Source: a virus. Taken from it: a stretch of DNA of 23,430 bases. The notes below the pieces were generated by a model. That model had not been told where the DNA came from. It did not search any database and saw only the letters and a program-made list of their open reading frames with translations. The DNA lies in IMG/VR virus record IMGVR_UViG_3300017528_000501, positions 1 through 23,430 of that record; one strand, 5' to 3'. A program made the position numbers and the translations under genes. Below, piece after piece: positions 2,625 to 15,588 of this stretch (position 1 is its first letter; the number at the start of each line of letters is the position of its first letter).

Positions 2625-2990
2625 TTAGGTAACACGCTTGAGGTGTACCTGACCACCGAACATGGTCTTGTCGAACCCGAACGGGTCGTCGCCACCCCAG
2701 TTACGAGGATCGTTCTGCACCAGAAACGCCTTGCCTTGAATCAGAATCCGGTCATTTTTGCTGTAGATTGTGGCGTCGGGGACGCTCATCAGCAGGTCGG
2801 TTTCGGTACGCGCCTCGTATTCGACGGTCACCGGATCGCGCCGCGGGCGCATGTGCAGCGGATATATCGCCTCAGCCATGCGTTTGACAGGCGGGGCGTG
2901 AATGTGGATTGGCTTGTTGTGGCTGTCCCTGGTGCCGGTGTCAGTCCACACCTGATGCTGCACCGGAATGTTCGCGGAAAAAACCGACAT
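2625..2990 (-). CDS. Head-to-tail stopper protein (121 aa)
   Basis: Closes the head after DNA packaging and forms the platform on which the tail docks. The family pattern is clear: an N-terminal VWTDTGTRDSHNKPI strand pair; a Pro-rich A-P-P-V-K-R stretch; an aromatic segment with I-Y-P-L-H; a polar R-P-R-R-D-P-V loop; the strand ARTETDLLMSVPD; then NDRILIQGKAFLVQ and D-P-R-N-W-G. The C-terminal part, D-P-F-G-F-D-K-T-M-F-G-G followed by a V-x-L-K-R-V end, is typical of actinophage stoppers. The length is normal. It starts one base after the stop of the preceding small gene (TAGATG). The separation of this gene from the head-tail adaptor (12820-13449) by nearly 10 kb is odd, since the two are normally near neighbours. 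Confidence 0.8.
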   Translation of the reverse strand: MSVFSANIPVQHQVWTDTGTRDSHNKPIHIHAPPVKRMAEAIYPLHMRPRRDPVTVEYEARTETDLLMSVPDATIYSKNDRILIQGKAFLVQNDPRNWGGDDPFGFDKTMFGGQVHLKRVT

Positions 2991-3197
2991 CTATCTTTTC
3001 CGCTCCACATGTCCGCGCAGGTTAGGATCGCTCATCGGGGAACTCCACGTCGTACGCGGGTAAACACCGATGTTGAGTGTGCGCAAACCACGCCAGATAG
3101 TCGGAACCGATTCGGTGGGTAAAGTATCTGACGACATAGCGCTCGGGAAAAGTGAATCGCTAGGGAATAACAAATCGGATGGGAATAGACCTGGCAT
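2991..3197 (-). CDS. Small protein with FPSD repeats (68 aa)
   Basis: Starts with three tandem copies of a short L-F-P-S-[DA] unit (residues 4-19), a motif I have seen in small structural genes of actinophages and at the ends of phage fibre proteins. The remainder is a Trp/Arg-containing segment (PTIWRGLRTLNIGVYPRTTW) and a basic C-terminus (RGHVERKR). The function is not recognised. It sits between the long repeat protein and the stopper, with only one base between the upstream stop and its ATG (TGAAATG) and none between its stop and the next ATG. It is therefore translated as part of the same chain of genes. A role as a small neck or fibre-attachment subunit is only inference. Confidence 0.6.
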   Translation of the reverse strand: MPGLFPSDLLFPSDSLFPSAMSSDTLPTESVPTIWRGLRTLNIGVYPRTTWSSPMSDPNLRGHVERKR

Positions 3198-3198
3198 T

Positions 3199-5460
3199 TC
3201 AGCTGCTTTCGTTTATTCGGAGATCCGCGGGCGCCCTAAAGATTCGGGTGCCACCCGGTGCAGCAGCGACGCGGGTGTCTGCTGTTGCCGCGAAAATTCT
3301 TGTGTCGACCGAATTTTTGAACACTCGATCATCGGTACCAGCCTCGAAAATCCGGTTGGACTGGTTGTACGCACTCGCCAACCCGAACACAACAACGGTG
3401 TCGATACCCGCCGGGAACAACGACTGCAGGCCGGAGAACTGGGAAAATGTCGGGGCACCGAAGCGTTCAACACCGGGGATGCCGCTCGGAGTGAACGTAT
3501 TAGAAGCGGTGAGGTTACCGAAAACGCCGACCGAGACAATCCCGCTCGGCGATATCGTCACCGCACCGGGTGTTACCGTTGGCGCTCCGGTTATTTCACC
3601 TGATCCGATTCCAGCTGGCGAAATCGTCTGCGTCAGCGCAGGATTGCCAAGTGTTTCACTGCCGCCAATACCTGCTGACGTAACAGCTTTCGCGACACTG
3701 AGTGCACCAACGGCTTCCGATGTTCCGATACCTGCTGGCGAGATGACCTGCGTGAGTGTCGGGCTGCCGAGTGTTTCACCAGTTCCGGTCCCGGCTAGTG
3801 CGACGCTTTGCGTCACTGTGACGAAACCGGCTTGCTCGGCGGTGCCGATGCCTGCCGGACTGATCAGTGATGCGCCAACACTGACATTGGGTACACCAAC
3901 AGCTTCTGCTGAACCGATACCGGCTGGCGAGACTGTGACCGCACCAGGAGTGACTGTAACAGAACCAGATCGCTCAGTTGACGCAATTCCCGCCGAACTG
4001 ATCAAGACAGTAACAACGGGGGCACCGAACGCCTCGCCGGTTGTCGCACCGGATGGCGTAATAACGCTTGTAATGCTCGGTGCGCCAACAGTTTCCGACG
4101 TACCGATACCGGCTGACGCAATTGTGTTGGCGGCAGTGATCGCCGGTTCGCCGATAGTTTGTGCTGACCCGATACCGGCTGGTGCAATACCGCCAACGCC
4201 TATTGCAGCCGCACCAATAGCTTCCGATGTACCGATACCAGCTGATGTGACAACGCTCGTAACAGTCGGTGCACCAACGGTTTCCGACGTGCCTATACCC
4301 GCTGACGCAATTGTGTTAGCAGCAGTGACTGCCGGTTCACCAATGACTTGTGCTGACCCGATACCGGCTGGCGCAATACCGACACCTACTGCAGCGGCAC
4401 CAGAAATCTCTCCGGTACCAATACCGGCTGGTGTGACTACCTCGGTAATAGTCGGTGCACCAACGGTTTCCGCTGTACCTATACCGACGGGTGAAACGAT
4501 CTGTGTGACGGTGGGTGCACCGAGTGTTTCACTAGTTGCGGTTCCTGCAGGGGCGATGCCAACGCCCACTGCAGCCGCACCGGAAACCTCTCCAGTACCG
4601 ACACCGGCAGGTGAGACTGTTACTACACCAGGCGTGACCTGGGGGCCACCAATGGCCTCTGCTGAGGCGATGCCAGCGAGTGAAACAATCTGTGTGACTG
4701 TCGGTGCACCAATAGTCTCCGAAGTTCCGACGCCTACTGGTGCAACACCAACCGCAACAGTCGCCGCACCAACAGTCTCGCCGCTACCGATACCGGTTGG
4801 CGTGACGATCTTCGTAACATTAGGTGCACCAACAGTTTCGGATGTTCCGATACCTGCTGGGCTGATCGTGTTGGCAGTAGTGACTGCAGATGCGCCAACA
4901 GTTTCACCGGTCGCGACACCGGATGGTGCGATCGTCTGCGTAACAGTCGGTGCGCCAACAATTTCTGAAGTTGCAACACCGGTCAGGGAAACCGTATTTG
5001 TTGCGCTAGCAGTTGATGCGCCAACGGTTTCCGATGTGTTGACACCGGCTGGAGCAATACCAACCGCGACTGTCGGCTCACCAACCGCTTCACTAGTTGC
5101 AATACCGACTGGTGCAATCGTGTTAGTGGCAGTGACTGCCGGTGCGCCAGCAGCTCCAGCTGTGTCAATACCGGCTGGTGCAATCGTGTTGGCTGCACTA
5201 ATCGCTGGTGCGCCAACAGTTTCCGCCGACGCTATACCAGCAGGCGAAATGACGTTCGTAATAGACGGTGCGCCAACAGCTTCCGCCGATAAGATACCGA
5301 CCGGTGAAACCGTGTTGGCTGCACTAATCGCCGGTGCGCCAACGGTTTCCGCTGATGCAATGCCAACTGGCGAAATCGTCTGCGCATTAACGACCGCACT
5401 GACCGGGCCAATCTTGGGCCGATACGACCCTACTGGTCGACCCCTACCGGCGCGGGACAT
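3199..5460 (-). CDS. Long tandem-repeat structural protein, probable virion fibre (753 aa)
   Basis: Three parts are visible. Residues 1-27 are a basic, Gly/Arg-rich head. Residues 28-702 consist of about 32 tandem units of 20-23 residues with consensus I-[SA]-P-[AV]-G-I-[GA]-[ST]-x-E-x-[VI]-G-x-P-x-[VI]-T. Residues 703-753 switch to a nine-residue repeat, D-x-R-[IV]-F-x-A-x-A. The units contain many Thr and Ser but very few aromatic, Cys or Lys residues, as expected for an elongated beta-type fibre or stalk. Similar G-I-x-S-x-E-x-x-G repeats occur in phage surface proteins of unknown fold. There is no signal peptide. It is translated from ATG 5460 after AAAGAG, which lies within the last codons of the HNH gene. 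The dense Thr/Ser pattern makes it a candidate acceptor for the glycosyltransferase encoded at 14566-15588. Its exact virion location is unknown. Confidence 0.8.
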   Translation of the reverse strand: MSRAGRGRPVGSYRPKIGPVSAVVNAQTISPVGIASAETVGAPAISAANTVSPVGILSAEAVGAPSITNVISPAGIASAETVGAPAISAANTIAPAGIDTAGAAGAPAVTATNTIAPVGIATSEAVGEPTVAVGIAPAGVNTSETVGASTASATNTVSLTGVATSEIVGAPTVTQTIAPSGVATGETVGASAVTTANTISPAGIGTSETVGAPNVTKIVTPTGIGSGETVGAATVAVGVAPVGVGTSETIGAPTVTQIVSLAGIASAEAIGGPQVTPGVVTVSPAGVGTGEVSGAAAVGVGIAPAGTATSETLGAPTVTQIVSPVGIGTAETVGAPTITEVVTPAGIGTGEISGAAAVGVGIAPAGIGSAQVIGEPAVTAANTIASAGIGTSETVGAPTVTSVVTSAGIGTSEAIGAAAIGVGGIAPAGIGSAQTIGEPAITAANTIASAGIGTSETVGAPSITSVITPSGATTGEAFGAPVVTVLISSAGIASTERSGSVTVTPGAVTVSPAGIGSAEAVGVPNVSVGASLISPAGIGTAEQAGFVTVTQSVALAGTGTGETLGSPTLTQVISPAGIGTSEAVGALSVAKAVTSAGIGGSETLGNPALTQTISPAGIGSGEITGAPTVTPGAVTISPSGIVSVGVFGNLTASNTFTPSGIPGVERFGAPTFSQFSGLQSLFPAGIDTVVVFGLASAYNQSNRIFEAGTDDRVFKNSVDTRIFAATADTRVAAAPGGTRIFRAPADLRINESS
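3202..3336 (-). repeat. C-terminal nonapeptide repeat block
   Basis: Five tandem units: TDDRVFKNSV, DTRIFAATA, DTRVAAAPG, GTRIFRAPA and DLRINESS, ending at the stop codon. The period of 9-10 residues differs from the 20-23 residue period of the rest of the protein, so this is a separate module. It may be a tip or an attachment region. Confidence 0.65.
3355..5379 (-). repeat. About 32 tandem 60-69 bp coding repeats
   Basis: Nearly the whole gene is built from units of 20, 22 or 23 codons that differ mainly at the linker: ...TQ or ...AV for 20, ...AAN for 22, ...PGAV for 23. The first two thirds hold the most uniform units. Units near the C-terminus are more divergent, with Phe appearing (VFG, RFG). 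At the DNA level, adjacent copies share runs such as GATACCGGCTGG and CCAACAGTTTC, which makes unequal recombination likely. Confidence 0.85.
4067..4382 (-). repeat. 189 bp higher-order duplication inside the repeat array
   Basis: Units 17-18 and 20-21 are near copies of each other, offset by exactly 189 bases (63 codons). For example, GACGCAATTGTGTT recurs at 4115 and 4304, and GTGCTGACCCGATACCGGCTGG recurs at the same offset. This is the clearest sign of recent block duplication in the array. Confidence 0.7.
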
Positions 5461-5463
5461 TAA

Positions 5464-5988
5464 CTACTCTTTAGGATAGAAGCGCGCCGGAAGCCGCTGC
5501 CGCCGATTTTGAGACTGTTCTTGCCTTGTCGCCCAGCGAAGATTCCCCGGCACATAGTCACCATCGTTATTAATCCTGTCTAACGTGGAACCCTCCGGGC
5601 GAGGCCCGAGATATTTATCCAAATACTCTGCAAAAACAGCAAAGTCAACCATCCACGGTTGATAGATCCCAATGCCCCGCCCGCCATAATAAGCCCAATC
5701 TGCGTGTGTCTCGCAAAGGCATTTACCCTTAATTGTCTGCCATGCTCGATACCGGTAATCCCCATATCCAGCACCATGTTTGAAATGCCTCTTCGATACC
5801 CGCTCACGCTTCAAGCAACCACAAGACTGTGAGCTATATGCTCCAATAGATTTGAGATTCCTAACATTGACGTCGCGCTCCGTCCCGCAATCGCAACGGC
5901 ATAAAACCTTACCAGTGGCTCGCGAGTAATCAGTCAACGCGACCCAACGACCGAACCGTTCCCCTCGTACTATACTCATGTGATACAT
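5464..5988 (-). CDS. Free-standing HNH endonuclease (174 aa)
   Basis: A homing-type nuclease inserted between two virion genes. The N-terminal part begins R-G-E-R-F-G-R-W and has a zinc-ribbon-like Cys set, C-R-C-D-C at residues 30-34 and C-G-C at 56-58. The middle has a Y-R-A-W-x-x-I-K-x-K-C segment and A-Y-Y-G-G-R-G-I. The C-terminal nuclease motif includes L-D-R-I-N-N-D-G-D-Y-x-P-G-N-L-R-W-A-T, where the D-R-I-N-N-D and N-L-R-W-A-T residues are typical of this phage HNH class. Free-standing members nick or cut intron-less or endonuclease-minus alleles and spread. Two in-frame ATGs (5988 and 5979) are possible and neither has a good Shine-Dalgarno site. A hairpin covers the second start (5974-6002). 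Removing the gene would leave the neighbours 6002-6496 and 3199-5460 intact, as expected for an insertion. Confidence 0.8.
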   Translation of the reverse strand: MYHMSIVRGERFGRWVALTDYSRATGKVLCRCDCGTERDVNVRNLKSIGAYSSQSCGCLKRERVSKRHFKHGAGYGDYRYRAWQTIKGKCLCETHADWAYYGGRGIGIYQPWMVDFAVFAEYLDKYLGPRPEGSTLDRINNDGDYVPGNLRWATRQEQSQNRRQRLPARFYPKE

Positions 5989-6002
5989 AATACATCATGA
6001 GT
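5974..6002 (-). promoter_or_regulatory. Hairpin over the HNH gene start
   Basis: Inverted repeat ACTCATG (5974-5980) / CATGAGT (5996-6002), extended by three more pairs across a two-base bulge. It spans the gap between the upstream stop and the HNH ATGs. In minus-strand RNA the ATG at 5979 lies inside the 3' arm. Hairpins that hide translation starts are known for phage-encoded homing endonucleases, so late translation of the nuclease may be damped. Confidence 0.45.
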
Positions 6003-6496
6003 CACTCCTCCCATACTACATAACACAGCATGTTGATCGTGGTCGCTGTAGTTACACGCACCCGAAGATAATCGGTGGAAACCACACCCGGCTCACGATC
6101 GAGCGGAAACTGTTTCGAATATTGTTGCGCCCACGTCAAACCACCATCCAATACACGAGTCGACGTAATCGTTCCCTCCGCTGAAGCGGTGAAACCTGAC
6201 GAGGCAGTACCCAGGGTGATTGCAGTCGCTGCGCCACCAGAATCATCGTAACCACGAACATCGCCTGCGTTGTAGGCAACCACCGTCGCATTGATAGCAC
6301 CAGTGGTGATCAGCTCGACTTTGATGACAGCGGTTGGAACAATATCAAAACTGTAGCCCCACTCCAAAATTGAGATATTGGTCGTCGGCTTGATCTGCAT
6401 CATCGTCTTGATAGCGGTACCCGTGGCAACCGATGCAAGTGCGGCAGTCAACGCAGCGGTAGCACCATTCCAGGCGATATACCTGCGTCTAGACAT
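6002..6496 (-). CDS. Virion structural protein of unknown role (164 aa)
   Basis: A small beta-rich protein with the composition of a phage decoration or fibre-tip protein: many Thr, Ala, Val and Gly, and two Cys. Near the N-terminus is a helix-like segment ending in T-G-T-A-I-K-T-M-M-Q-I. This is followed by P-T-T-N-I-S-I-L-E-W-G-Y-S-F-D, a pattern that recurs in phage proteins of this size next to tail fibre genes. The later part is Thr-rich strands ending in D-Y-L-R-V-R-V-T-T-A-T. ATG 6496 is preceded by AAGGAGATAC, the best ribosome site in the cassette, so strong expression is likely. The function is not recognised beyond structural by context. Confidence 0.65.
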   Translation of the reverse strand: MSRRRYIAWNGATAALTAALASVATGTAIKTMMQIKPTTNISILEWGYSFDIVPTAVIKVELITTGAINATVVAYNAGDVRGYDDSGGAATAITLGTASSGFTASAEGTITSTRVLDGGLTWAQQYSKQFPLDREPGVVSTDYLRVRVTTATTINMLCYVVWEE

Positions 6497-7234: not shown

Positions 7235-8221
<987 letters not shown>

Positions 8222-8243: not shown

Positions 8244-9086
8244 TTAAAGTCCGGCCTGCGTTGTGGCACAACGGAATCCACATGCATACACAATACCAGT
8301 TGGTGTCGTCGGACTATTCCGATACAACCCGTCTTTACAATAAGCAGCAACCTGACCATTTGACATGGTCTGGCCTCGCCATGTAGTTGTTCCATCCAGA
8401 AATGTTTGAACAGAACCGTTATGCCACAAGTTAATAAATCCGTTCGCCGGATTTGTCGACCAATGAACTTGCATGATCACGTCATGCCAAGCACCAAGAG
8501 TCAGCGGCGTTTCCCAGATCGAAATAGCGTTAGCACTAACCGTTTTGGTTTGCAACATCCACTTGGTCGGATTCCACGACGCGCCCCCAAAAGCTATACA
8601 CGGCGCCCACGATGTCCCGTCATCAGCGTGCCACTGACCCGTTACGCACCATGGTGTATTCGCCATATCGAAATTGGACGCAAACATTATCGAATGCGAA
8701 TACCACAATGTCTGCCCCTCGACACCCCCAGGAGTGTCGTTTGATGCAACCTCCGACCGTTCGCCACCACCGAAATTAGGTACATCACCAGTTCGTACTT
8801 CGAACCGGGCAACCGTGCCTTTGATTCCGTTTGGATCACTGACGAACGTCAGAGAATACAGGTTACCTGTATAACCAGACCCCGTACTGTTGTACAGACG
8901 GGACTGATATCCTACCCATTGCGATGCATTTCCCGTCGAAAAATCACCATTAAAAATTCGGGTAGCACCCGACGATGCACCCGTAACTGTCGGTATCCAC
9001 GCCGAACCGGCTGCCTGCGCTAGCACAGCTATTGTCGATGCGTCAGCTGAGGCCGGTACATAAACCCTCGTTGCCCTAATCTCCAC
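8244..9086 (-). CDS. Polysaccharide-lyase-like protein (280 aa)
   Basis: The N-terminal about 40 residues are a short linker with an Ala-rich helix. The rest is one beta-sandwich lyase-like domain matching its downstream neighbour: F-N-G-D-F-S-T-G-N-A-S-Q-W, F-E-V-R-T-G-D-V-P-N-F, E-R-S-E-V-A, L-W-Y-S, T-G-Q-W-H-A-D, A-W-H-D-V-I-M-Q, N-L-W-H-N-G and T-F-L-D-G, then a Y-C-K-D-G-L-Y-R and P-T-G-I-V end. The conserved Q-W-H, W-H-D and W-x-N-G motifs are those of the heparin-lyase-I-like family. This suggests a virion depolymerase or a glycan-binding domain derived from one. Several Cys residues here are absent from the paralog. GTG 9086 is preceded by GGAGG at five bases, which settles the start. 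Confidence 0.72.
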   Translation of the reverse strand: MEIRATRVYVPASADASTIAVLAQAAGSAWIPTVTGASSGATRIFNGDFSTGNASQWVGYQSRLYNSTGSGYTGNLYSLTFVSDPNGIKGTVARFEVRTGDVPNFGGGERSEVASNDTPGGVEGQTLWYSHSIMFASNFDMANTPWCVTGQWHADDGTSWAPCIAFGGASWNPTKWMLQTKTVSANAISIWETPLTLGAWHDVIMQVHWSTNPANGFINLWHNGSVQTFLDGTTTWRGQTMSNGQVAAYCKDGLYRNSPTTPTGIVYACGFRCATTQAGL

Positions 9087-9104: not shown

Positions 9105-10508
9105 TCAAGCCGGTTTCAACGCACCCAGCCATGCACCCGATGACGAGTTTTGCGAGAAGGAACCGACAACCGACCCAGAACTACCCGCAACAACCTGTGG
9201 CATATCTGCTAAAACTAAACCGTTTGAAGCGGTCATACCTTGACGTTGCGTGAATCCAGCAGGCATTGTCCACACAATTCCACCGACACCATTAGTGCTT
9301 GCAATCCAGATCCATGTTCTATTAGATCCAACAGTGGAATTAATCACTGCCGGAGTATTCGGATCTACACTAGTTGTTTTAATCGCCGAATTAGTGGAAA
9401 CAATCACTGGGTCCGTTGGGTCACAACCAGTATATCGACAGGCAATTGCCTGCCGGGTAATCAAACCAGCTGCAATAGTAAACGTGTAGGTACCTGTGTC
9501 CGCTGCAATAGCACGCTTCCAGTAAACACGCAAATCTTGCGCAAGAGTACCTGTTACCACTACAGGAGAACTAGTGATCTCCACAAACCCGGTCGGTGAT
9601 GTCACAACTTGCGTGGTTTCAATATAGAAGGCAACAATAATAACATCGCCCGCTACCACCCCAGCTGGAACCGGCACAGCAGCCGTTGTCGAATTACTGC
9701 TAACCAATGTTGTCGAAGATGCAAATGCTGGTGGGGTCGTGGTAGGAACCGTAACCGTAGGCGGATAAGCTAATGCTGACCCCAACCCAGGCCCACCGCC
9801 GATCAATACAGCTTCCCCACTAATTGTTGGAATAGGCGCCAACCCTGAACTGGATGCCAATACGGCCACCCTGATTACAGGTAGTCCTAACGGTTGAATA
9901 GCATTAGCGTTGGCGGTAGCAACAACCGCATTTACGGTAACACCGTAAGTAACAGTCGGCACAAAAGCATTAGCGGATGCTGTCGCTATCACCGCAAACC
10001 CAGTAGATGCCGCAGTGCCAATCACAGACACCGAACCGGCCGTAGAGGTTGCAGCAGCTATAGGCGATGCAACAACAGCGCCAGCAGTAACAGTCGCCAC
10101 CAATGCTGTTGCCGACGCTGCCGATACCAATGCAAACTGATTAGCCGAGGTTGCACCACCCAATGCTGCCGCATAAGCCACACCGATCGACGCGGCTATA
10201 GGCGCATTCACCGTCGGACTACGCACACTCGTTACCGCAGGTGGTAACGCGATACCTGTTGCGGCTGCACGCACCGCAACAACAAGCCCGGACTGCCCAA
10301 TAACAGCGGTTACAACGGCACCATAAGCTGTGGCTGCACCCGTCGAAACAACGGCGGCCACCGTCACTGTACGAATACCAGTCACCGCTGGGGCGGACGC
10401 CATTCCAAACGCTGCAGCACACACCTGCACCATGCCGGGCAGCGCAACCCTCGGCAAATCAATGTCTACCGGAATCACCGGTCGCGGCGAAATATCTATC
10501 TCATGCAT
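9105..10508 (-). CDS. Ala/Thr/Val-rich repetitive structural protein with C-terminal beta domain (467 aa)
   Basis: Residues 1-30 contain an I-D-L-P-R-V-A-L-P segment. Residues about 30-265 are a degenerate repeat of roughly 20-25 residues rich in Ala, Val and Thr, with the shape V-x-A-x-A-x-A-x-x-x-x-P-x-V-T. There are almost no charged residues, consistent with a fibrous or solenoid stalk. Residues about 265-467 form a beta domain similar to the protein at 6512-7225: G-D-V-I-I-V, S-P-T-G-F-V-E-I, L-R-V-Y-W-K-R-A, T-G-T-Y-T-F-T-I and W-T-M-P-A-G-F-T. This C-terminal type is frequent at the ends of phage fibres. ATG 10508 follows GAGGATATCTC, so it is preferred to longer starts. Probably a head or tail fibre; its attachment site is unknown. 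Confidence 0.68.
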   Translation of the reverse strand: MHEIDISPRPVIPVDIDLPRVALPGMVQVCAAAFGMASAPAVTGIRTVTVAAVVSTGAATAYGAVVTAVIGQSGLVVAVRAAATGIALPPAVTSVRSPTVNAPIAASIGVAYAAALGGATSANQFALVSAASATALVATVTAGAVVASPIAAATSTAGSVSVIGTAASTGFAVIATASANAFVPTVTYGVTVNAVVATANANAIQPLGLPVIRVAVLASSSGLAPIPTISGEAVLIGGGPGLGSALAYPPTVTVPTTTPPAFASSTTLVSSNSTTAAVPVPAGVVAGDVIIVAFYIETTQVVTSPTGFVEITSSPVVVTGTLAQDLRVYWKRAIAADTGTYTFTIAAGLITRQAIACRYTGCDPTDPVIVSTNSAIKTTSVDPNTPAVINSTVGSNRTWIWIASTNGVGGIVWTMPAGFTQRQGMTASNGLVLADMPQVVAGSSGSVVGSFSQNSSSGAWLGALKPA

Positions 10509-10534
10509 GAGATATCCTCGCACGCACTATCAAA

Positions 10535-10972
10535 CTAACTTACAGTTACCGAAATTATTCCAGCCGGGTCCCACGAAATAGTAAAGTTTCCACCGGATGA
10601 TATAACATCGGCACCGAAATCGACATAACAAATCAGCGGCCGAGTAGCATCCGTACCAGGGGTAGAATCATAAATTATGGCATACCTAGCAGTAATTGTG
10701 GATGCCGCCCATACCACATCGGCTCCATCAAGGTTAAAAGTATTCGTACCGGCTGTGTAAGCAACCACCAACGATGCGATAGCCTGACCTGCCGCCACAT
10801 ATGCAGTTCCCACAACCTCATTCGTGATAGACGACTTATATTGGTGCGTATCCTGGCTTGGAGTATAAAGGCTAGTGCACAGCATTACTTTTAATGCATC
10901 GCTGTCCAGATCGATTTCTTTATTACCCAACGACTTCTGAAACAGACCATATTGAAGTGCGGTTACTGCCAT
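10535..10972 (-). CDS. Small virion protein, GGNFT-WD family (145 aa)
   Basis: Recognisable as a widespread small phage structural protein often found beside fibre genes. It has L-Q-Y-G-L-F-Q-K-S-L-G then D-L-D-S-D-A-L-K-V-M-L-C, an inner A-D-V-V-W-A-A-S segment with A-R-Y-A-I-I-Y, and the ending G-G-N-F-T-I-S-W-D. The same ending type closes the protein at 11600-12493, so the two are related. No enzyme motif is visible. It is likely a decoration or fibre-base subunit. The ATG at 10972 lies two bases after the upstream stop, with only a weak GGCGAG element, which points to coupled translation. Confidence 0.7.
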   Translation of the reverse strand: MAVTALQYGLFQKSLGNKEIDLDSDALKVMLCTSLYTPSQDTHQYKSSITNEVVGTAYVAAGQAIASLVVAYTAGTNTFNLDGADVVWAASTITARYAIIYDSTPGTDATRPLICYVDFGADVISSGGNFTISWDPAGIISVTVS

Positions 10973-11270: not shown

Positions 11271-11603
11271 TCAACTATCGGCTCGATCGGTTATACCGTT
11301 CATAGCGACAATCTCAGTTGTTGGAATTGTTGGATACGACACAACACATCGCCAAATGGTGCCCGCTGGAATATCGTCGACAATTCCCGATTCGACTTTG
11401 CATACGGCGTGGTAATCAACCGTCACTGCAGGAGCAATAACTCCAGCGGAATGGGGGGTACTTTCAATCACCAAATTTACATTAACACCGATATCGTAAT
11501 TGACATATACACCGCCGATACTCTGTAGGAAATCAACAACCAAATCTCCGCCTTTAGACAACGGCAATACCCGTCTTGGCGGCCGATTGAATACATCGGT
11601 CAT
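11271..11603 (-). CDS. Structural protein with FNRPPRRVLPL start (110 aa)
   Basis: A small beta protein that begins V-F-N-R-P-P-R-R-V-L-P-L-S-K-G-G-D-L-V-V-D-F. It continues with N-V-N-L-V-I, a central strand region, and I-P-A-G-T-I-W-R-C-V-V-S-Y before the C-terminus. This start and the G-T-x-W-R-x-x-V-S strand recur in small actinophage virion proteins located beside fibre-adaptor genes. The exact role is not established. The ATG overlaps the preceding stop as ATGA, which excludes the longer upstream start. Confidence 0.65.
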   Translation of the reverse strand: MTDVFNRPPRRVLPLSKGGDLVVDFLQSIGGVYVNYDIGVNVNLVIESTPHSAGVIAPAVTVDYHAVCKVESGIVDDIPAGTIWRCVVSYPTIPTTEIVAMNGITDRADS

Positions 11604-12493
11604 AGCTTGAAAATTCCCACGTGCTGCGAACCGACTGAATCCCAAGCGACAGTAATATTCCCACCATTTGGCGTAACGGGGAGCCCACTAGCTGTGGCTG
11701 GTGCGGAAGCCCTGGCAGCTGCGGCAACAGTCGTTGATGTCACGGTGATGGTGCGGGCGAACGCGGCGGGTGCACCGTTGATAGTGGCCGACGTACCGTC
11801 GCTGAACGCGAGCACCGTGCTGTTGGGAATAGCTGCCGCAAGTCGTTCCACCGGTAAGACCGTGCCAGCCGCGAGCGCAGCAGCACACGTGACGACCATC
11901 TGACCATCAATCCATGCCACCATCTTGTCGGTGGACGCCAAAGTACCGGAAACCGAAGAGGCAGTGGCGAGGATCGCGATAGCGCTGACGGCAGCACCAG
12001 AAACGGCGGTAAACGTTGTGCTGGCGGCACTTACGATGCCTTGCACCTCAGTCACGGATGTGAGTTTTACCGCTGTGCCAATCAGGGCACCGCTGAAGCT
12101 GGCCCACGTTCCGAAGCTTGGCCCCAGGTTGATCGCAACGCCACCGCTTGTGTAGGCACCGACGAGGGTTCCTTGTACGGCGGTGATCGGGTCAACTAAA
12201 TTGAACGCGTTGGTGGTTTGGCCGGAAACGACCCACATGTTGTTGGCGGTGGTGGTGCCGCCGACACCGGAAACGATGATCACGTCACCGTTGGCAAAAC
12301 CGTGCGCAGTAACGGTTAGCGCAGCGGCACCAGCACCGGTGGTGGCACCTGTGATTGCTTTGATTCCAGCGGTGGGAACGGTGTAGGTCATCAGGGCAGC
12401 CTGGAGTGCGCCAGCGCCACCCAAACCCGTTACCGCATTGATGGTTCCGTCCGCGAAGAAGTTCCTGCCGGTTTCGAAAACCGCATTGGCCAT
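11600..12493 (-). CDS. Structural protein with HGFANGD domain (297 aa)
   Basis: The N-terminus, with F-E-T-G-R-N-F-F-A-D-G-T-I, leads to a repeat-like module at residues about 45-115: A-L-T-V-T-A-H-G-F-A-N-G-D-V-I-I-V-S-G-V, later N-A-F-N-L-V and G-A-Y-T-S-G-G. This HGF-x-x-GD module is common in phage fibre and decoration proteins. The central segment (K-M-V-A-W-I-D-G-Q) and the end G-G-N-I-T-V-A-W-D match the smaller neighbour at 10535-10972, so the two share ancestry, with the HGF module inserted in this one. Ala, Thr and Val dominate. ATG 12493 is preceded by AGGAGAAA. A virion surface protein is likely. Confidence 0.7.
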   Translation of the reverse strand: MANAVFETGRNFFADGTINAVTGLGGAGALQAALMTYTVPTAGIKAITGATTGAGAAALTVTAHGFANGDVIIVSGVGGTTTANNMWVVSGQTTNAFNLVDPITAVQGTLVGAYTSGGVAINLGPSFGTWASFSGALIGTAVKLTSVTEVQGIVSAASTTFTAVSGAAVSAIAILATASSVSGTLASTDKMVAWIDGQMVVTCAAALAAGTVLPVERLAAAIPNSTVLAFSDGTSATINGAPAAFARTITVTSTTVAAAARASAPATASGLPVTPNGGNITVAWDSVGSQHVGIFKL

Positions 12494-12505: not shown

Positions 12506-12823
12506 CTATTTCTGGAAAATATCGAGGTAGAGGGTTTGATCATCCTGGCGCCCCTGCGCGGTGGTAATGTGATTGACGATCGCGTGCATTGCACCAAAAA
12601 TCTGCATCGGATCGTCCACATGGCCACCCAACAACCACACAGTCGTATTGGTGGGTGCGAAGCTTGAGGTGAAGACCGCGATCCCGGTGTCGAATTCCCC
12701 ACCCGCAAGCGTGGGTATCCACGTCGAAGTGACGATGGTGTCGCCCGGTACGAGAAAAGGCGTCCAATCGCCTTCGTAATCCAGTTTGGCTGACGGATCT
12801 TTCACGTCATACCAGATGGTCAT
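12506..12823 (-). CDS. Fibre-tail-adaptor-like structural protein (105 aa)
   Basis: Has the pattern K-D-P-S-A-K-L-D-Y-E-G-D-W-T-P-F-L, then G-D-T-I-V-T-S-T-W-I and, further on, T-T-V-W-L-L-G-G, ending with H-I-T-T-A-Q-G-R-Q-D-D-Q-T-L. Proteins with KDP.A.LDY..DW, GDTI..S.W and T..GR.DD..L are widespread beta-sandwich phage subunits placed next to fibre genes and often described as fibre-tail adaptors. Here it lies immediately after the head-tail adaptor gene, so it may dock the following fibre proteins to the neck or head. The ATG overlaps the preceding stop as ATGA. Confidence 0.7.
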   Translation of the reverse strand: MTIWYDVKDPSAKLDYEGDWTPFLVPGDTIVTSTWIPTLAGGEFDTGIAVFTSSFAPTNTTVWLLGGHVDDPMQIFGAMHAIVNHITTAQGRQDDQTLYLDIFQK

Positions 12824-13449
12824 ATCAACAGCCGCACATAGTTGTCGACATTGATCTGATCAAACAAATCATCGAACGGTTCACTGGTTTTACCAATGTG
12901 GTATGGACCAATCGTCAAATCGAACGAACCGACCAGACCGCGAACCAAAGACATCCGGTCGGCGACCATCAGCACAATCTGGCGCCAATCGGCAGCCTCA
13001 GTTTCGGTCCAACCATGCGTGAACGTGACAACGATGCCCGCAAAATTGACCGACCAGCGCTGATGTGTCTTTTTTTCGACATTGCCCACCTGGTCAAACT
13101 GCAACGTCGAAATGTCCAGCGGCACACCGTCCTCCACCAATGACGAGATGCCTTGCAATCGTTTTGTCGGCAACATCAGCGTCTGACCGCCGGTACGCTG
13201 CCTGTGCAGGCCGCCGCCACTAGCGTAATACGGCCCGCCGTACAGGTTTCCGGCGCCGACCCCCCAGCCACCCCACTGCCCCGGCCCATTCAACGTCAGG
13301 GTCTCAGTCCGCACCGGCGACACAGGCCAGCGACAGTAGTTGCGCACCATGCTCAATGCCGCGGACAGCACCCGCTTGGTTTCGTAGTCGTTTCTGACGA
13401 GTCGGCCTTTAGTATAGGACTCCAGGTCAATCGGGCTAAGTTCAGCCAT
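12820..13449 (-). CDS. Head-tail adaptor (connector) protein (209 aa)
   Basis: Forms the ring below the portal. The N-terminal helical half (P-I-D-L-E-S-Y-T-K-G-R-L, then T-K-R-V-L-S-A-A-L-S-M-V-R-N-Y-C-R-W-P-V) is the DNA-packaging/gp6-like connector fold. It is followed by E-T-L-T-L-N-G-P-G and an L-M-L-P-T-K-R-L segment that begins the beta wing. A Gly/Tyr-rich insert of about 35 residues lies between these two halves and is unusually long. The C-terminal R-L-x-x-x-x-F-D-L-T-I and D-N-Y-V-R-L segments close the protein. ATG 13449 overlaps the upstream stop by a few bases (ATGGCTGA). This start is preferred to the longer frame because the connector pattern begins at MAELSPID. Confidence 0.75.
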   Translation of the reverse strand: MAELSPIDLESYTKGRLVRNDYETKRVLSAALSMVRNYCRWPVSPVRTETLTLNGPGQWGGWGVGAGNLYGGPYYASGGGLHRQRTGGQTLMLPTKRLQGISSLVEDGVPLDISTLQFDQVGNVEKKTHQRWSVNFAGIVVTFTHGWTETEAADWRQIVLMVADRMSLVRGLVGSFDLTIGPYHIGKTSEPFDDLFDQINVDNYVRLLI

Positions 13450-13999
13450 TAACCCTCGCAACCTCAATATGTTCCAGCGCGGAGGCACAAGCCTGTAAGC
13501 CAAACGCTTTGCGCGCCAACGCGAACACTCCGGGGCACTGCGGTTCATCCTCTTCCATCGCGAGCGGTTCCATTTTGAAGGCTTCAACGATGCTCCACAT
13601 GTCGTCGAACGTGTATCGCCAATGATCCTCGGGGAAAGGATGATAAGGGAAGCCGGGTGATCGTGTGGTAATCAACAGCAGACCACCCGGGGCTGTCGCT
13701 GCCACCATCTGCCGCATACAAGTCCGCCAATCACGGACATGTTCGAGCATTTCGGTGGATATAACGACATCCCATGCGTCATACCCCATTTCGATAGGTA
13801 ACCGCTCGCAGTCGACGATCAAGTCAACACCCGGACCGTCCTGCATGTCGACGCCGATATATGTTGTGGGGCCTAATGATTCAATGTAGGGACGCACAGA
13901 ACCGTTAACGTCGTAGGCACCCACTTCGAGAACAGCCTTGTTTTCGACGTCTTCGGCATAAAGCGACCGTTTCACGAAATCCATTACAGTTGGGTGCAT
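13442..13999 (-). CDS. SAM-dependent methyltransferase, class I (185 aa)
   Basis: A class I (Rossmann-fold) methyltransferase. The SAM-binding motif I is V-L-E-V-G-A-Y-D-V-N-G, followed by the acidic end of strand 2 (Y-I-G-V-D-M). The catalytic-side motif is D-A-W-D-V-V-I-S-T-E-M-L-E-H-V, and motif III is A-P-G-G-L-L-L-I-T-T-R-S, a layout like the ubiE/Methyltransf_11 group. The substrate is unknown. Its location with another methyltransferase and a glycosyltransferase suggests a sugar hydroxyl or another small glycan-linked target, not DNA, since DNA-methylase motifs such as DPPY or NPPY are absent. ATG 13999 has no strong ribosome site, and it lies 13 bases after the upstream stop. Confidence 0.8.
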   Translation of the reverse strand: MHPTVMDFVKRSLYAEDVENKAVLEVGAYDVNGSVRPYIESLGPTTYIGVDMQDGPGVDLIVDCERLPIEMGYDAWDVVISTEMLEHVRDWRTCMRQMVAATAPGGLLLITTRSPGFPYHPFPEDHWRYTFDDMWSIVEAFKMEPLAMEEDEPQCPGVFALARKAFGLQACASALEHIEVARVNG

Positions 14000-14012
14000 C
14001 AGTCAACCATTT

Positions 14013-14591
14013 TCATCTAGTCAGCACCCCTATACCAAACCCGGCGATGTGACTTCGCAGATGATCCTCGGTATCGATGATTTCCACCGCAGACTCATCT
14101 TTGATCTCATCCCAAAACTGTTTGACCGCAATGTTATCCACATTGGATTGTCCAGGTAATATGGGTGCAATGTCATGGAAAGCTATCAGACCACCACGCC
14201 TGACAAGCGGACTGTACATCGCATAGTCCTGGCACACACCATCGTAGGAATGATCACCATCAATGAACAGAAAATCTATTTCACGACCATCCAGCTGCTT
14301 TTTCAGTGCTGTAACAGTTTTCACATCATGCGAATTACCGAGTATCAATGTTGAACATCCAAATTCAACCACGTGTGGACCATCAGGCGCCCAATCAATC
14401 CCGATGGTAATCGGAGCAATCTGTTCCCAGGCATAGAGTGTGCCACCGACATGGACGCCGATTTCTACTATCACCTGTAGGTTCAAATCCATTAGGAGAC
14501 TGAGGAATTCAGCCAACTCTTTAGGCTTCTGTATCGCGCGATTGGCGATGGCAGCTTCTACGATCTCATCGCAGGATGCTTTTATACGCAT
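14013..14591 (-). CDS. SAM-dependent methyltransferase, CmcI/Methyltransf_24-like (192 aa)
   Basis: Rossmann-fold methyltransferase with V-I-V-E-I-G-V-H-V-G-G-T at residues about 40-51 (SAM site), T-I-G-I-D-W (strand 2 acid), and the family signature D-F-L-F-I-D-G-D-H-S-Y-D-G-V-x-x-D. R-R-G-G-L-I-A-F-H-D-I follows. The FIDGDHSY and FHDI motifs, with their Asp/His pairs, are typical of the metal-dependent CmcI and sugar O-methyltransferase group, which acts on antibiotic and glycan hydroxyls. A role in methylating the sugar added by the neighbouring glycosyltransferase is therefore plausible but not shown. ATG 14591 follows GGAG and overlaps the glycosyltransferase end by 26 bases. Confidence 0.82.
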   Translation of the reverse strand: MRIKASCDEIVEAAIANRAIQKPKELAEFLSLLMDLNLQVIVEIGVHVGGTLYAWEQIAPITIGIDWAPDGPHVVEFGCSTLILGNSHDVKTVTALKKQLDGREIDFLFIDGDHSYDGVCQDYAMYSPLVRRGGLIAFHDIAPILPGQSNVDNIAVKQFWDEIKDESAVEIIDTEDHLRSHIAGFGIGVLTR

Positions 14592-15588
14592 CAGCCCACT
14601 CCGACCATCCGGTTTGTATCGTCCACTGCGACGCCAACTCCCGAGCCTTTGCACCCATCTCTTCGCGCATAGCTTCGTCGTTGATCAGTTCACGCAGTCG
14701 TGTCGCCCATTCATGTTCACGACGCACCAGAAATCCCGTGACTCCGTCGATCACGAAATCCCGGTAAGGCGCCGTATCAGATGCGATAACAGGGATGCCG
14801 AGAGCCGAATATTCAAGCGCTTTGATGTGCGATTTCGTTTCGGCGAAAACCGTTGGCACCAACGGCGCAATGCCGATGTCGAAGTCGATCAGCTTGTAGT
14901 AGTCAGTGGTGGTCAGACACCACGGCGTGAATCTCACCGGCCGACGAATAAGCGATGTGAAATCGGCGCCGATGAAATGAACGTCAACATCTTTGTGATG
15001 ATCCATCGTCTTACGCAGCCCGTAGGCACATGACGCGATATCGTCGCGATGACTACCGCCACCGGCCCATCCGATGGTGAGCCGATCTCGTTTCGGCCGT
15101 TGCATTTTCAGCATCGACTCATCCACCCGGTTTTGCAACACAACAACGTTGGGGTTAATCTTGCTCATCCGCTCAGCCAGCACAGGCGTGGATACTGTGA
15201 CAAGATCAGCAACCTGTAGGCAATGCGTGATGCTGTCGCGCGAACCCGGATGCGAGTAAAAGTAATACACCGGATTGTGGGGTTCAATCTCAAAAGGATC
15301 GTCATCCAACTCGTAAACCAACCGGCATTCACGAGCGAGATTACGCCACCAATGATGCGCCACTACAACAGGACTGACGCCATGATCCAAAAGCGCAGCC
15401 ACTTTTTGGCGAGTAACCTGACCGCCGATGAACTGACCTACAACGATGTCAGCACCATCGGCTGTCACATCGGATCTCGACAGTACACAAGACGTTTCAT
15501 GACCGTGATTAACAAGTTCACCCAAGGGCTGACGAATACGATACCAACCACCGCCCTCAGGCTGGCGGCCAACGCCTTTAATCTTCAC
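14566..15588 (-). CDS. Glycosyltransferase, GT-B fold (GT4-like) (340 aa)
   Basis: The N-terminal domain has a G-G-G-W-Y-R-I-R-Q-P-L start, then V-G-Q-F and Y-E-L-D-D-D-P-F, a form common in phage GT4-like enzymes. The C-terminal donor domain has L-T-I-G-W-A-G-G-G-S-H, D-I-G-I-A-P-L, then K-S-H-I-K-A-L-E-Y-S-A-L-G-I-P-V-I-A-S-D. That last stretch is the acidic E-x7 region of retaining GT-B enzymes that holds the sugar nucleotide. The activity is transfer of a sugar from a nucleotide donor; acceptor and sugar are unknown. Mycobacteriophages with similar genes near their structural region are known to glycosylate capsid or tail proteins, which is the model I favour here. It starts at GTG 15588, overlapping the upstream stop (GTGA). 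Confidence 0.85.
   Translation of the reverse strand: MKIKGVGRQPEGGGWYRIRQPLGELVNHGHETSCVLSRSDVTADGADIVVGQFIGGQVTRQKVAALLDHGVSPVVVAHHWWRNLARECRLVYELDDDPFEIEPHNPVYYFYSHPGSRDSITHCLQVADLVTVSTPVLAERMSKINPNVVVLQNRVDESMLKMQRPKRDRLTIGWAGGGSHRDDIASCAYGLRKTMDHHKDVDVHFIGADFTSLIRRPVRFTPWCLTTTDYYKLIDFDIGIAPLVPTVFAETKSHIKALEYSALGIPVIASDTAPYRDFVIDGVTGFLVRREHEWATRLRELINDEAMREEMGAKARELASQWTIQTGWSEWADAYKSILR

What the first reader, a model, noticed from the sequence alone, without database searches (positions are those of the whole stretch)
3199..5460. 753-residue protein with about 32 copies of a G-I-x-T-x-E-x-x-G repeat
The unit P-[AV]-G-I-[GA]-[ST]-x-E-x-[VI]-G-x-P is repeated almost without interruption across residues 28-702 with lengths of 20, 22 or 23. 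The low aromatic and charge content and regular Gly/Pro spacing suggest a beta-solenoid or fibrous stalk. Thr/Ser at fixed positions in each unit would display a regular array of glycosylation sites. I do not know a solved fold for this repeat.
Basis: partly seen in the sequence, partly recalled or inferred. Interest (0 to 1): 0.65.

Follow-up and report, generated by a model that had tools for sequence, protein, structure and literature searches.

The report
Repetitive stalk of phage adhesion fibre
This virus gene encodes a long protein built from about 32 similar 20-23-residue blocks that very probably forms the stalk of a fibre on a tailed phage; in several related viruses the same stalk is fused to a protein of the head-tail joint, so some phages probably carry such adhesion fibres on the neck and not only at the tail tip.

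Summary
Window 3199-5460 (MINUS strand) encodes a 753-aa protein with about 32 units of 20, 22 or 23 aa. The core G[IVT]x[ST]xExxG occurs 24 times (shuffles: mean 0.06); silent sites have drifted while residues are kept, so the motif is under selection. It matches PHROG 13352 'minor tail protein' (8e-54); no Pfam or PDB sequence match. 347 IMG/VR stretches encode relatives with the same unit lengths. In some the array follows lectin-like domains (Laminin_G_3, DUF2341); in nine loci (about six distinct) it is fused to a lambda gpFII-type head-tail joining protein, in one to a tail terminator. Here the gene ends a 9.8-kb cassette (phrog_644, two polysaccharide-lyase-like proteins, HNH endonuclease) between head-tail adaptor and stopper genes; in relative L006 those two genes abut. 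phrog_644 lies in 33 of 35 repeat-bearing records and is related to the solved 'tail wing arm' of phage Bxb1. Best reading: stalk of a swappable host-adhesion appendage on neck or tail tip. Beta-solenoid is only a weak prediction (pLDDT 66; AF2 is biased to it). Virion presence and location in this phage are inferred.

The parts
3199..5460 (-). CDS of the 753-aa repeat protein
   Evidence: phrog_13352 minor tail protein E 8.2e-54
5374..5460 (-). N-terminal 29 residues, MSRAGRGRP...; short basic 'MARxGR' start also seen in relatives L007, L033, L085, L106
   Evidence: (N-termini list)
3382..5373 (-). about 32 GIxSxExxG units of 20/22/23 aa (residues 30-693), the stalk
3202..3354 (-). C-terminal 9-residue mini-repeats R[IV]Fxxxx[DG][TDL] (residues 703-753), candidate anchor or cap
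   Evidence: same pattern in L029, L055
2991..3197 (-). small ORF, 68 aa, starts with LFPSDLLFPSDSLFPS, between repeat gene and stopper
   Evidence: no PHROG match
2625..2990 (-). head-tail stopper/adaptor (phrog_763)
   Evidence: E 5.3e-11
12820..13587 (-). head-tail adaptor (phrog_442), other side of the cassette
   Evidence: E 1.2e-28
10535..10972 (-). phrog_644 protein, constant neighbour of repeat proteins; related to Bxb1 tail wing arm gp31
9105..10523 (-). Ala-rich second repeat-like protein with C-terminal domain (phrog_6813), probable fibre component
8244..9086 (-). polysaccharide-lyase-like protein (PF14099)
   Evidence: E 2.5e-31
7235..8221 (-). poly-proline plus polysaccharide-lyase-like protein (PF14099), paralogue of the former
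   Evidence: E 3.7e-24
6002..6496 (-). 164-aa protein that travels with the repeat gene (homologue upstream of it in L007)
5464..5988 (-). HNH endonuclease directly before the repeat gene
   Evidence: phrog_374 E 1.5e-42

Best explanation
The protein is the stalk of a host-adhesion fibre on a siphophage virion. About 32 units stack end to end to give length; each unit contributes two short beta strands (predicted) with conserved Gly/Pro turn positions and an invariant Glu. The stalk holds binding or glycan-cleaving proteins (here perhaps the separately encoded lyase-like and Ala-rich proteins; in relatives lectin-like domains fused to it) away from the particle. It is encoded in a swappable cassette between the adaptor and stopper genes. 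In this phage I think it most likely sits at the head-tail neck (about 0.45), else on the tail tip as a wing-like appendage (about 0.35). Shown: repeats, selection, relatives, fusions, gene context, absence of the cassette at the same site in L006. Inferred: presence in the virion, location, fold, binding function, and which proteins the stalk carries.
For: PHROG 13352 minor tail protein E 8e-54. 347 viral stretches with relatives. Laminin_G_3 and/or DUF2341 in front of the array in L024, L042, L072, L077, L100. Arrays fused to a head-closure protein in L058, L065, L068, L072, L100, L110 (phrog_82 E 2.6e-12 to 1.6e-16; PF05354 above its cut-off in L058, L065, L072, L100), also near-copies L083, L101, L103 (read); tail terminator fusion in L091 (phrog_78 4.5e-6). 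Downstream neighbours include tail terminators, adaptors, Neck1 and sheath. Window gene order adaptor - cassette - stopper; in L006 adaptor and stopper abut. phrog_644 in 33/35 repeat-bearing records, 31 of 33 within 3.6 kb, homologous to Bxb1 'tail wing arm' (9d93_Ra, E 9.8e-21). Satellite MiniFlayer has phrog_644 and a LamG/repeat protein just before its adaptor and short fibres that bind its helper (PMC10690885).
Against: The gene itself carries no head-closure fusion, so a neck location rests on relatives and gene position. Position is not fixed: in L007 the repeat gene lies upstream of TerL, in M. abscessus phages after the tape measure among minor tail genes, in L089 and L047 far from adaptor and capsid genes. 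Bxb1's phrog_644 relative is at the tail tip. No virion data for this phage.
Confidence: 0.65

Rival explanations
1. It is a tail-tip (baseplate) side fibre or wing component, as annotated in M. abscessus prophages, and its place between adaptor and stopper genes only reflects where the cassette landed.
For: phiT46-1 gene 23 and prophiFSIL01-1 gene 70 are repeat proteins among minor tail genes, with phrog_644 immediately downstream; the phrog_644 relative is the Bxb1 tail wing arm; cassette position varies.
Against: About six distinct relatives have the array covalently joined to a head-closure protein and one to a tail terminator; several repeat genes sit directly before neck genes.
Confidence: 0.33
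2. The repeats are a flexible, disordered low-complexity spacer without defined fold.
For: Low charge, Gly/Ala/Pro/Ser/Thr-rich composition; AF2 confidence only 66 and AF2 solenoids of repeats can be unreal.
Against: The Gly and Glu pattern and three fixed unit lengths kept across many relatives and codon-level purifying selection are not expected of a mere disordered linker. (The relatives' units were collected with the motif itself, so the pattern's strictness there is partly by selection of units; the spacings are not.)
Confidence: 0.12
3. It decorates the capsid as a head fibre.
For: In L093 and L107 the phrog_644 - repeat pair follows the capsid gene closely.
Against: No fusion to a capsid or decoration protein was seen; fusions are to neck proteins.
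Confidence: 0.08

Closest known systems
Minor tail proteins of M. abscessus phages (phiT46-1 gp23, prophiFSIL01-1 gp70; PHROG 553/13352)
   Same: Same kind of repeats in the N-terminal part (about 32% identity), phrog_644 next to it.
   Different: Fewer units (under ten) instead of 32, large C-terminal domains fused, gene lies after the tape measure.
Bxb1 tail wing (base gp30, arm gp31, brush gp33; PDB 9d93)
   Same: gp31 is a phrog_644 relative, so a phrog_644 protein is a proven part of a lateral appendage.
   Different: Brush gp33 is Gly-rich, without these repeats; mounted on the tail tip.
Neck passage structure of lactococcal 936/TP901-1 phages
   Same: Works alike: neck-borne fibres carrying carbohydrate-binding modules, non-essential in TP901-1 and variable between phages (PMC6669499).
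   Different: Described there as a BppU-like ring with helical fibres; not compared by sequence here.
T4 fibritin whiskers, XM1 collar spikes, phi29 pre-neck appendages
   Same: Neck/collar fibres, with proposed roles in sensing or attachment (PMC10491603).
   Different: Triple coiled coils; this stalk is predicted all-beta.
Satellite phage MiniFlayer genes 6-9
   Same: phrog_644, then LamG + repeat protein, then adaptor; its fibres bind the helper neck.
   Different: Different repeat (PMTGSG type).

Membership tests
PHROG 13352 / GIxSxExxG-repeat minor tail proteins | Significant profile match over several repeat stretches | tested here: met
   E 8.2e-54, 7 stretches; relatives P0003 and the L016 protein also match
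PHROG 13352 / GIxSxExxG-repeat minor tail proteins | C-terminal part of the profile (positions about 327-702, matched by M. abscessus members) | tested here: inconclusive
   best stretch covers profile 14-115 only; the table lists only the best stretch
Neck appendage joined to head-closure protein | Own gpFII-type (PF05354/phrog_82) domain in the same protein | tested here: not met
   window protein has no Pfam match and only phrog_13352; met in relatives
Neck appendage joined to head-closure protein | Gene adjacent to head-tail joining genes | tested here: met
   adaptor - cassette - stopper order
Lactococcal neck passage structure | BppU-like ring domain and helical fibre | not tested
   no NPS sequence was compared; known only from PMC6669499
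Bxb1-type tail wing | phrog_644 arm protein in the module | tested here: met
   window 10535-10972 phrog_644 E 3.7e-43; family profile hits 9d93_Ra
Bxb1-type tail wing | Homologues of gp30 base and gp33 brush | tested here: not met
   no similarity of the nine window proteins compared to gp29, gp30 or gp33 by blastp/phmmer; remote homology not excluded
Monomeric beta-solenoid | Confident parallel beta coil | tested here: inconclusive
   pLDDT 65.8, pTM 0.58; method biased

The most novel reading that the evidence does not exclude
A widespread, unrecognised class of neck fibre: a modular all-beta GIxSxExxG stalk, tied directly or through neighbouring genes to the head-closure/stopper ring and carrying lectin or glycan-cleaving domains, moved between phages as a cassette with a phrog_644 arm protein.
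Probability: 0.4. Interest if true: 0.7.

Novelty: new variant of a known kind. Interest (0 to 1): 0.52.

Why it matters
Host recognition is usually sought at the tail tip. If many uncultured phages display lectin-tipped stalks from the neck, receptor-binding prediction from genomes must look there too. The fusions of this stalk to gpFII-type proteins, and the phrog_644 link to a solved Bxb1 appendage part, turn a set of 'hypothetical' and 'minor tail' genes into a testable appendage module.

Tried and rejected
Pfam and PDB sequence searches of the repeat: nothing. Foldseek against PDB and viral models: no E<=0.001; VIA Z up to 14.5 against assorted beta-solenoid-like proteins is not trusted because the model is weak and the method biased. 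Near-DNA search of the whole window in phages: no match. Antisense 766-aa frame as a gene: rejected, only 1 of 68 relatives keeps 90% of an antisense frame open, though a stop-free frame has P 0.008 under synonymous permutation. Single-protein patterns missed most relatives; an alignment query found 347. Two wrong ORFs (L057, L090) were removed from the phrog_644 alignment before folding. C-terminal 9-mer tail alone: no phage match. A fixed neck location for the whole family was rejected because capsid/adaptor markers lie far from the array in L089, L047 and L074. Portal, adaptor, terminator and PF05354 profiles ring in few of the 35 records, so they could not give a statistic on location. No paper mentions phrog_644 or phrog_13352; the Bxb1 structure paper itself is not held.

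Full report
WHAT IS THERE. The window is a 23,430-base IMG/VR virus record. Nearly all genes run on the minus strand and form a siphophage head-tail module: TerL, portal, S78 protease, HK97-type capsid, glycosyltransferase- and methyltransferase-like genes (read from sequence), head-tail adaptor, a cassette, stopper, neck protein, tail terminator, major tail protein, tail assembly chaperone. The finding's gene is 3199-5460 on the minus strand, 753 aa.

THE REPEAT. I find 32 unit starts from residue 30 to about 693 and 24 strict G[IVT]x[ST]xExxG cores against 0.06 expected in shuffles. Codon positions 1, 2, 3 are 0.64, 0.74, 0.38 identical between units: the amino acids are held while silent sites have drifted. 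From residue 703 there is a second, 9-residue repeat, also present in the relatives L029 and L055.

RELATIVES. tblastn in named phages finds only nine M. abscessus phage records at about 32% identity, all annotated minor tail protein. An alignment-based scan finds 347 coding stretches in viral contigs (80 kept) and ten in genome contigs, including Pseudonocardia, Dehalococcoidia and Pseudomonadota bins. The same three unit lengths dominate. The closest full-length relative, L007 (portal 60% identical), shares about 42% over the array and the N-terminus.

ARCHITECTURE. In relatives the array is one module among others. N-terminal to it: Laminin_G_3 and DUF2341. C-terminal to it: the lambda gpFII-type head-tail attachment protein (PF05354, phrog_82) in L058, L065, L068, L072, L100, L110 and the near copies L083, L101, L103, and a tail terminator in L091. 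Genes following the array include tail terminators, adaptors, Neck1 and sheath. A protein that is one chain with a neck protein is expected to be anchored at the neck (inference from the known place of gpFII); the array then projects the lectin-like domain outward.

CASSETTE. In the window 9.8 kb separate adaptor and stopper: phrog_644, an Ala-rich protein, two PF14099 polysaccharide-lyase-like paralogues, small proteins, an HNH endonuclease and the repeat gene. In L006, whose head genes are 56-66% identical, the adaptor stop is followed at once by the stopper. So the cassette is an insertion here (or a loss in L006) and is not needed for the head-tail joint as such. The closest contig, L010 (portal 81%), has the first cassette-side gene after its adaptor, then ends. 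In L007 the repeat gene and its 164-aa companion lie upstream of TerL instead, so the module moves.

PARTNER. phrog_644 (unknown function) is in 33 of 35 larger repeat-bearing records, once each, 31 of 33 within 3.6 kb of the array, and directly after the repeat gene in the M. abscessus phages. By tblastn it is in 161 of 50,697 phage records (less sensitive than the profile, so the contrast is indicative only). Its profile matches Bxb1 gp31, 'tail wing arm', in PDB 9d93 (E 9.8e-21); AF2 gives a beta-rich fold (pLDDT 80.7) with a Z 10.8 match in a Klebsiella phage baseplate protein. Satellite MiniFlayer has a phrog_644 protein, then a LamG protein with a different repeat, then its adaptor; its short fibres adsorb to the helper's neck, and its tail fibre gene with the adjacent hypothetical genes was proposed as its adsorption module (PMC10690885).

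STRUCTURE. The AF2 model of eight units is regular, two strands per unit, but weak, without significant fold match. AF2 is known to fold repeats into unreal beta-solenoids with stacked charges (PMC11795689); here too an invariant Glu would stack along one face, so I do not accept the solenoid as shown.

MECHANISM. Shown: selected repeats, modular fusion to lectin-like and neck proteins in relatives, phage structural context, presence/absence of the cassette, phrog_644 linkage. Inferred: that this protein is in the virion, forms a stalk, holds the lyase-like proteins, and sits at the neck (0.45) or tail tip (0.35). Working analogues are the lactococcal neck passage fibres with carbohydrate-binding modules (PMC6669499) and T4/XM1/phi29 collar fibres (PMC10491603); membership in those families is not claimed.

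VERDICT. Observation confirmed. The stalk reading is supported, the solenoid weak, glycosylation unsupported. The repeat belongs to a known but uncharacterised minor-tail family; the joining of this stalk to head-closure proteins in relatives and its association with a movable phrog_644 cassette is the new part.

Noticed in passing
window 3179-5479 (+): A 766-aa antisense ORF spans the whole repeat gene and its product even resembles the sense protein (40% over residues 25-196); not conserved in relatives.
   Followed up: yes
window 10535-10972 and 11600-12493: The 297-aa protein at 11600-12493 shares N- and C-terminal motifs with phrog_644 proteins, as if it were a phrog_644 protein with a large insertion (phrog_584 and phrog_644 matches).
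   Followed up: partly
window 7937-8034: Poly-proline run of about 33 residues linking the N-terminal part and the lyase-like domain of the 7235-8221 protein.
   Followed up: no
window 13442-15588; L006, L010, L011, L012: Glycosyltransferase- and methyltransferase-like genes after the capsid gene are conserved in relatives; may modify virion proteins.
   Followed up: no
L111 5186-9997 (MiniFlayer genes 6-8): Neck-binding satellite phage carries a phrog_644 protein 58.5% identical to the window's and a LamG protein with PMTGSG repeats.
   Followed up: partly
L113 8764-12363 (Pseudomonas phage 8P): Diverged PAGIxxxxxGxP-like repeats in a protein a few genes after phrog_644; phage F116 also has a phrog_644 match.
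   Followed up: no
window 2991-3197: 68-aa ORF opening with LFPSDLLFPSDSLFPS between repeat gene and stopper.
   Followed up: no
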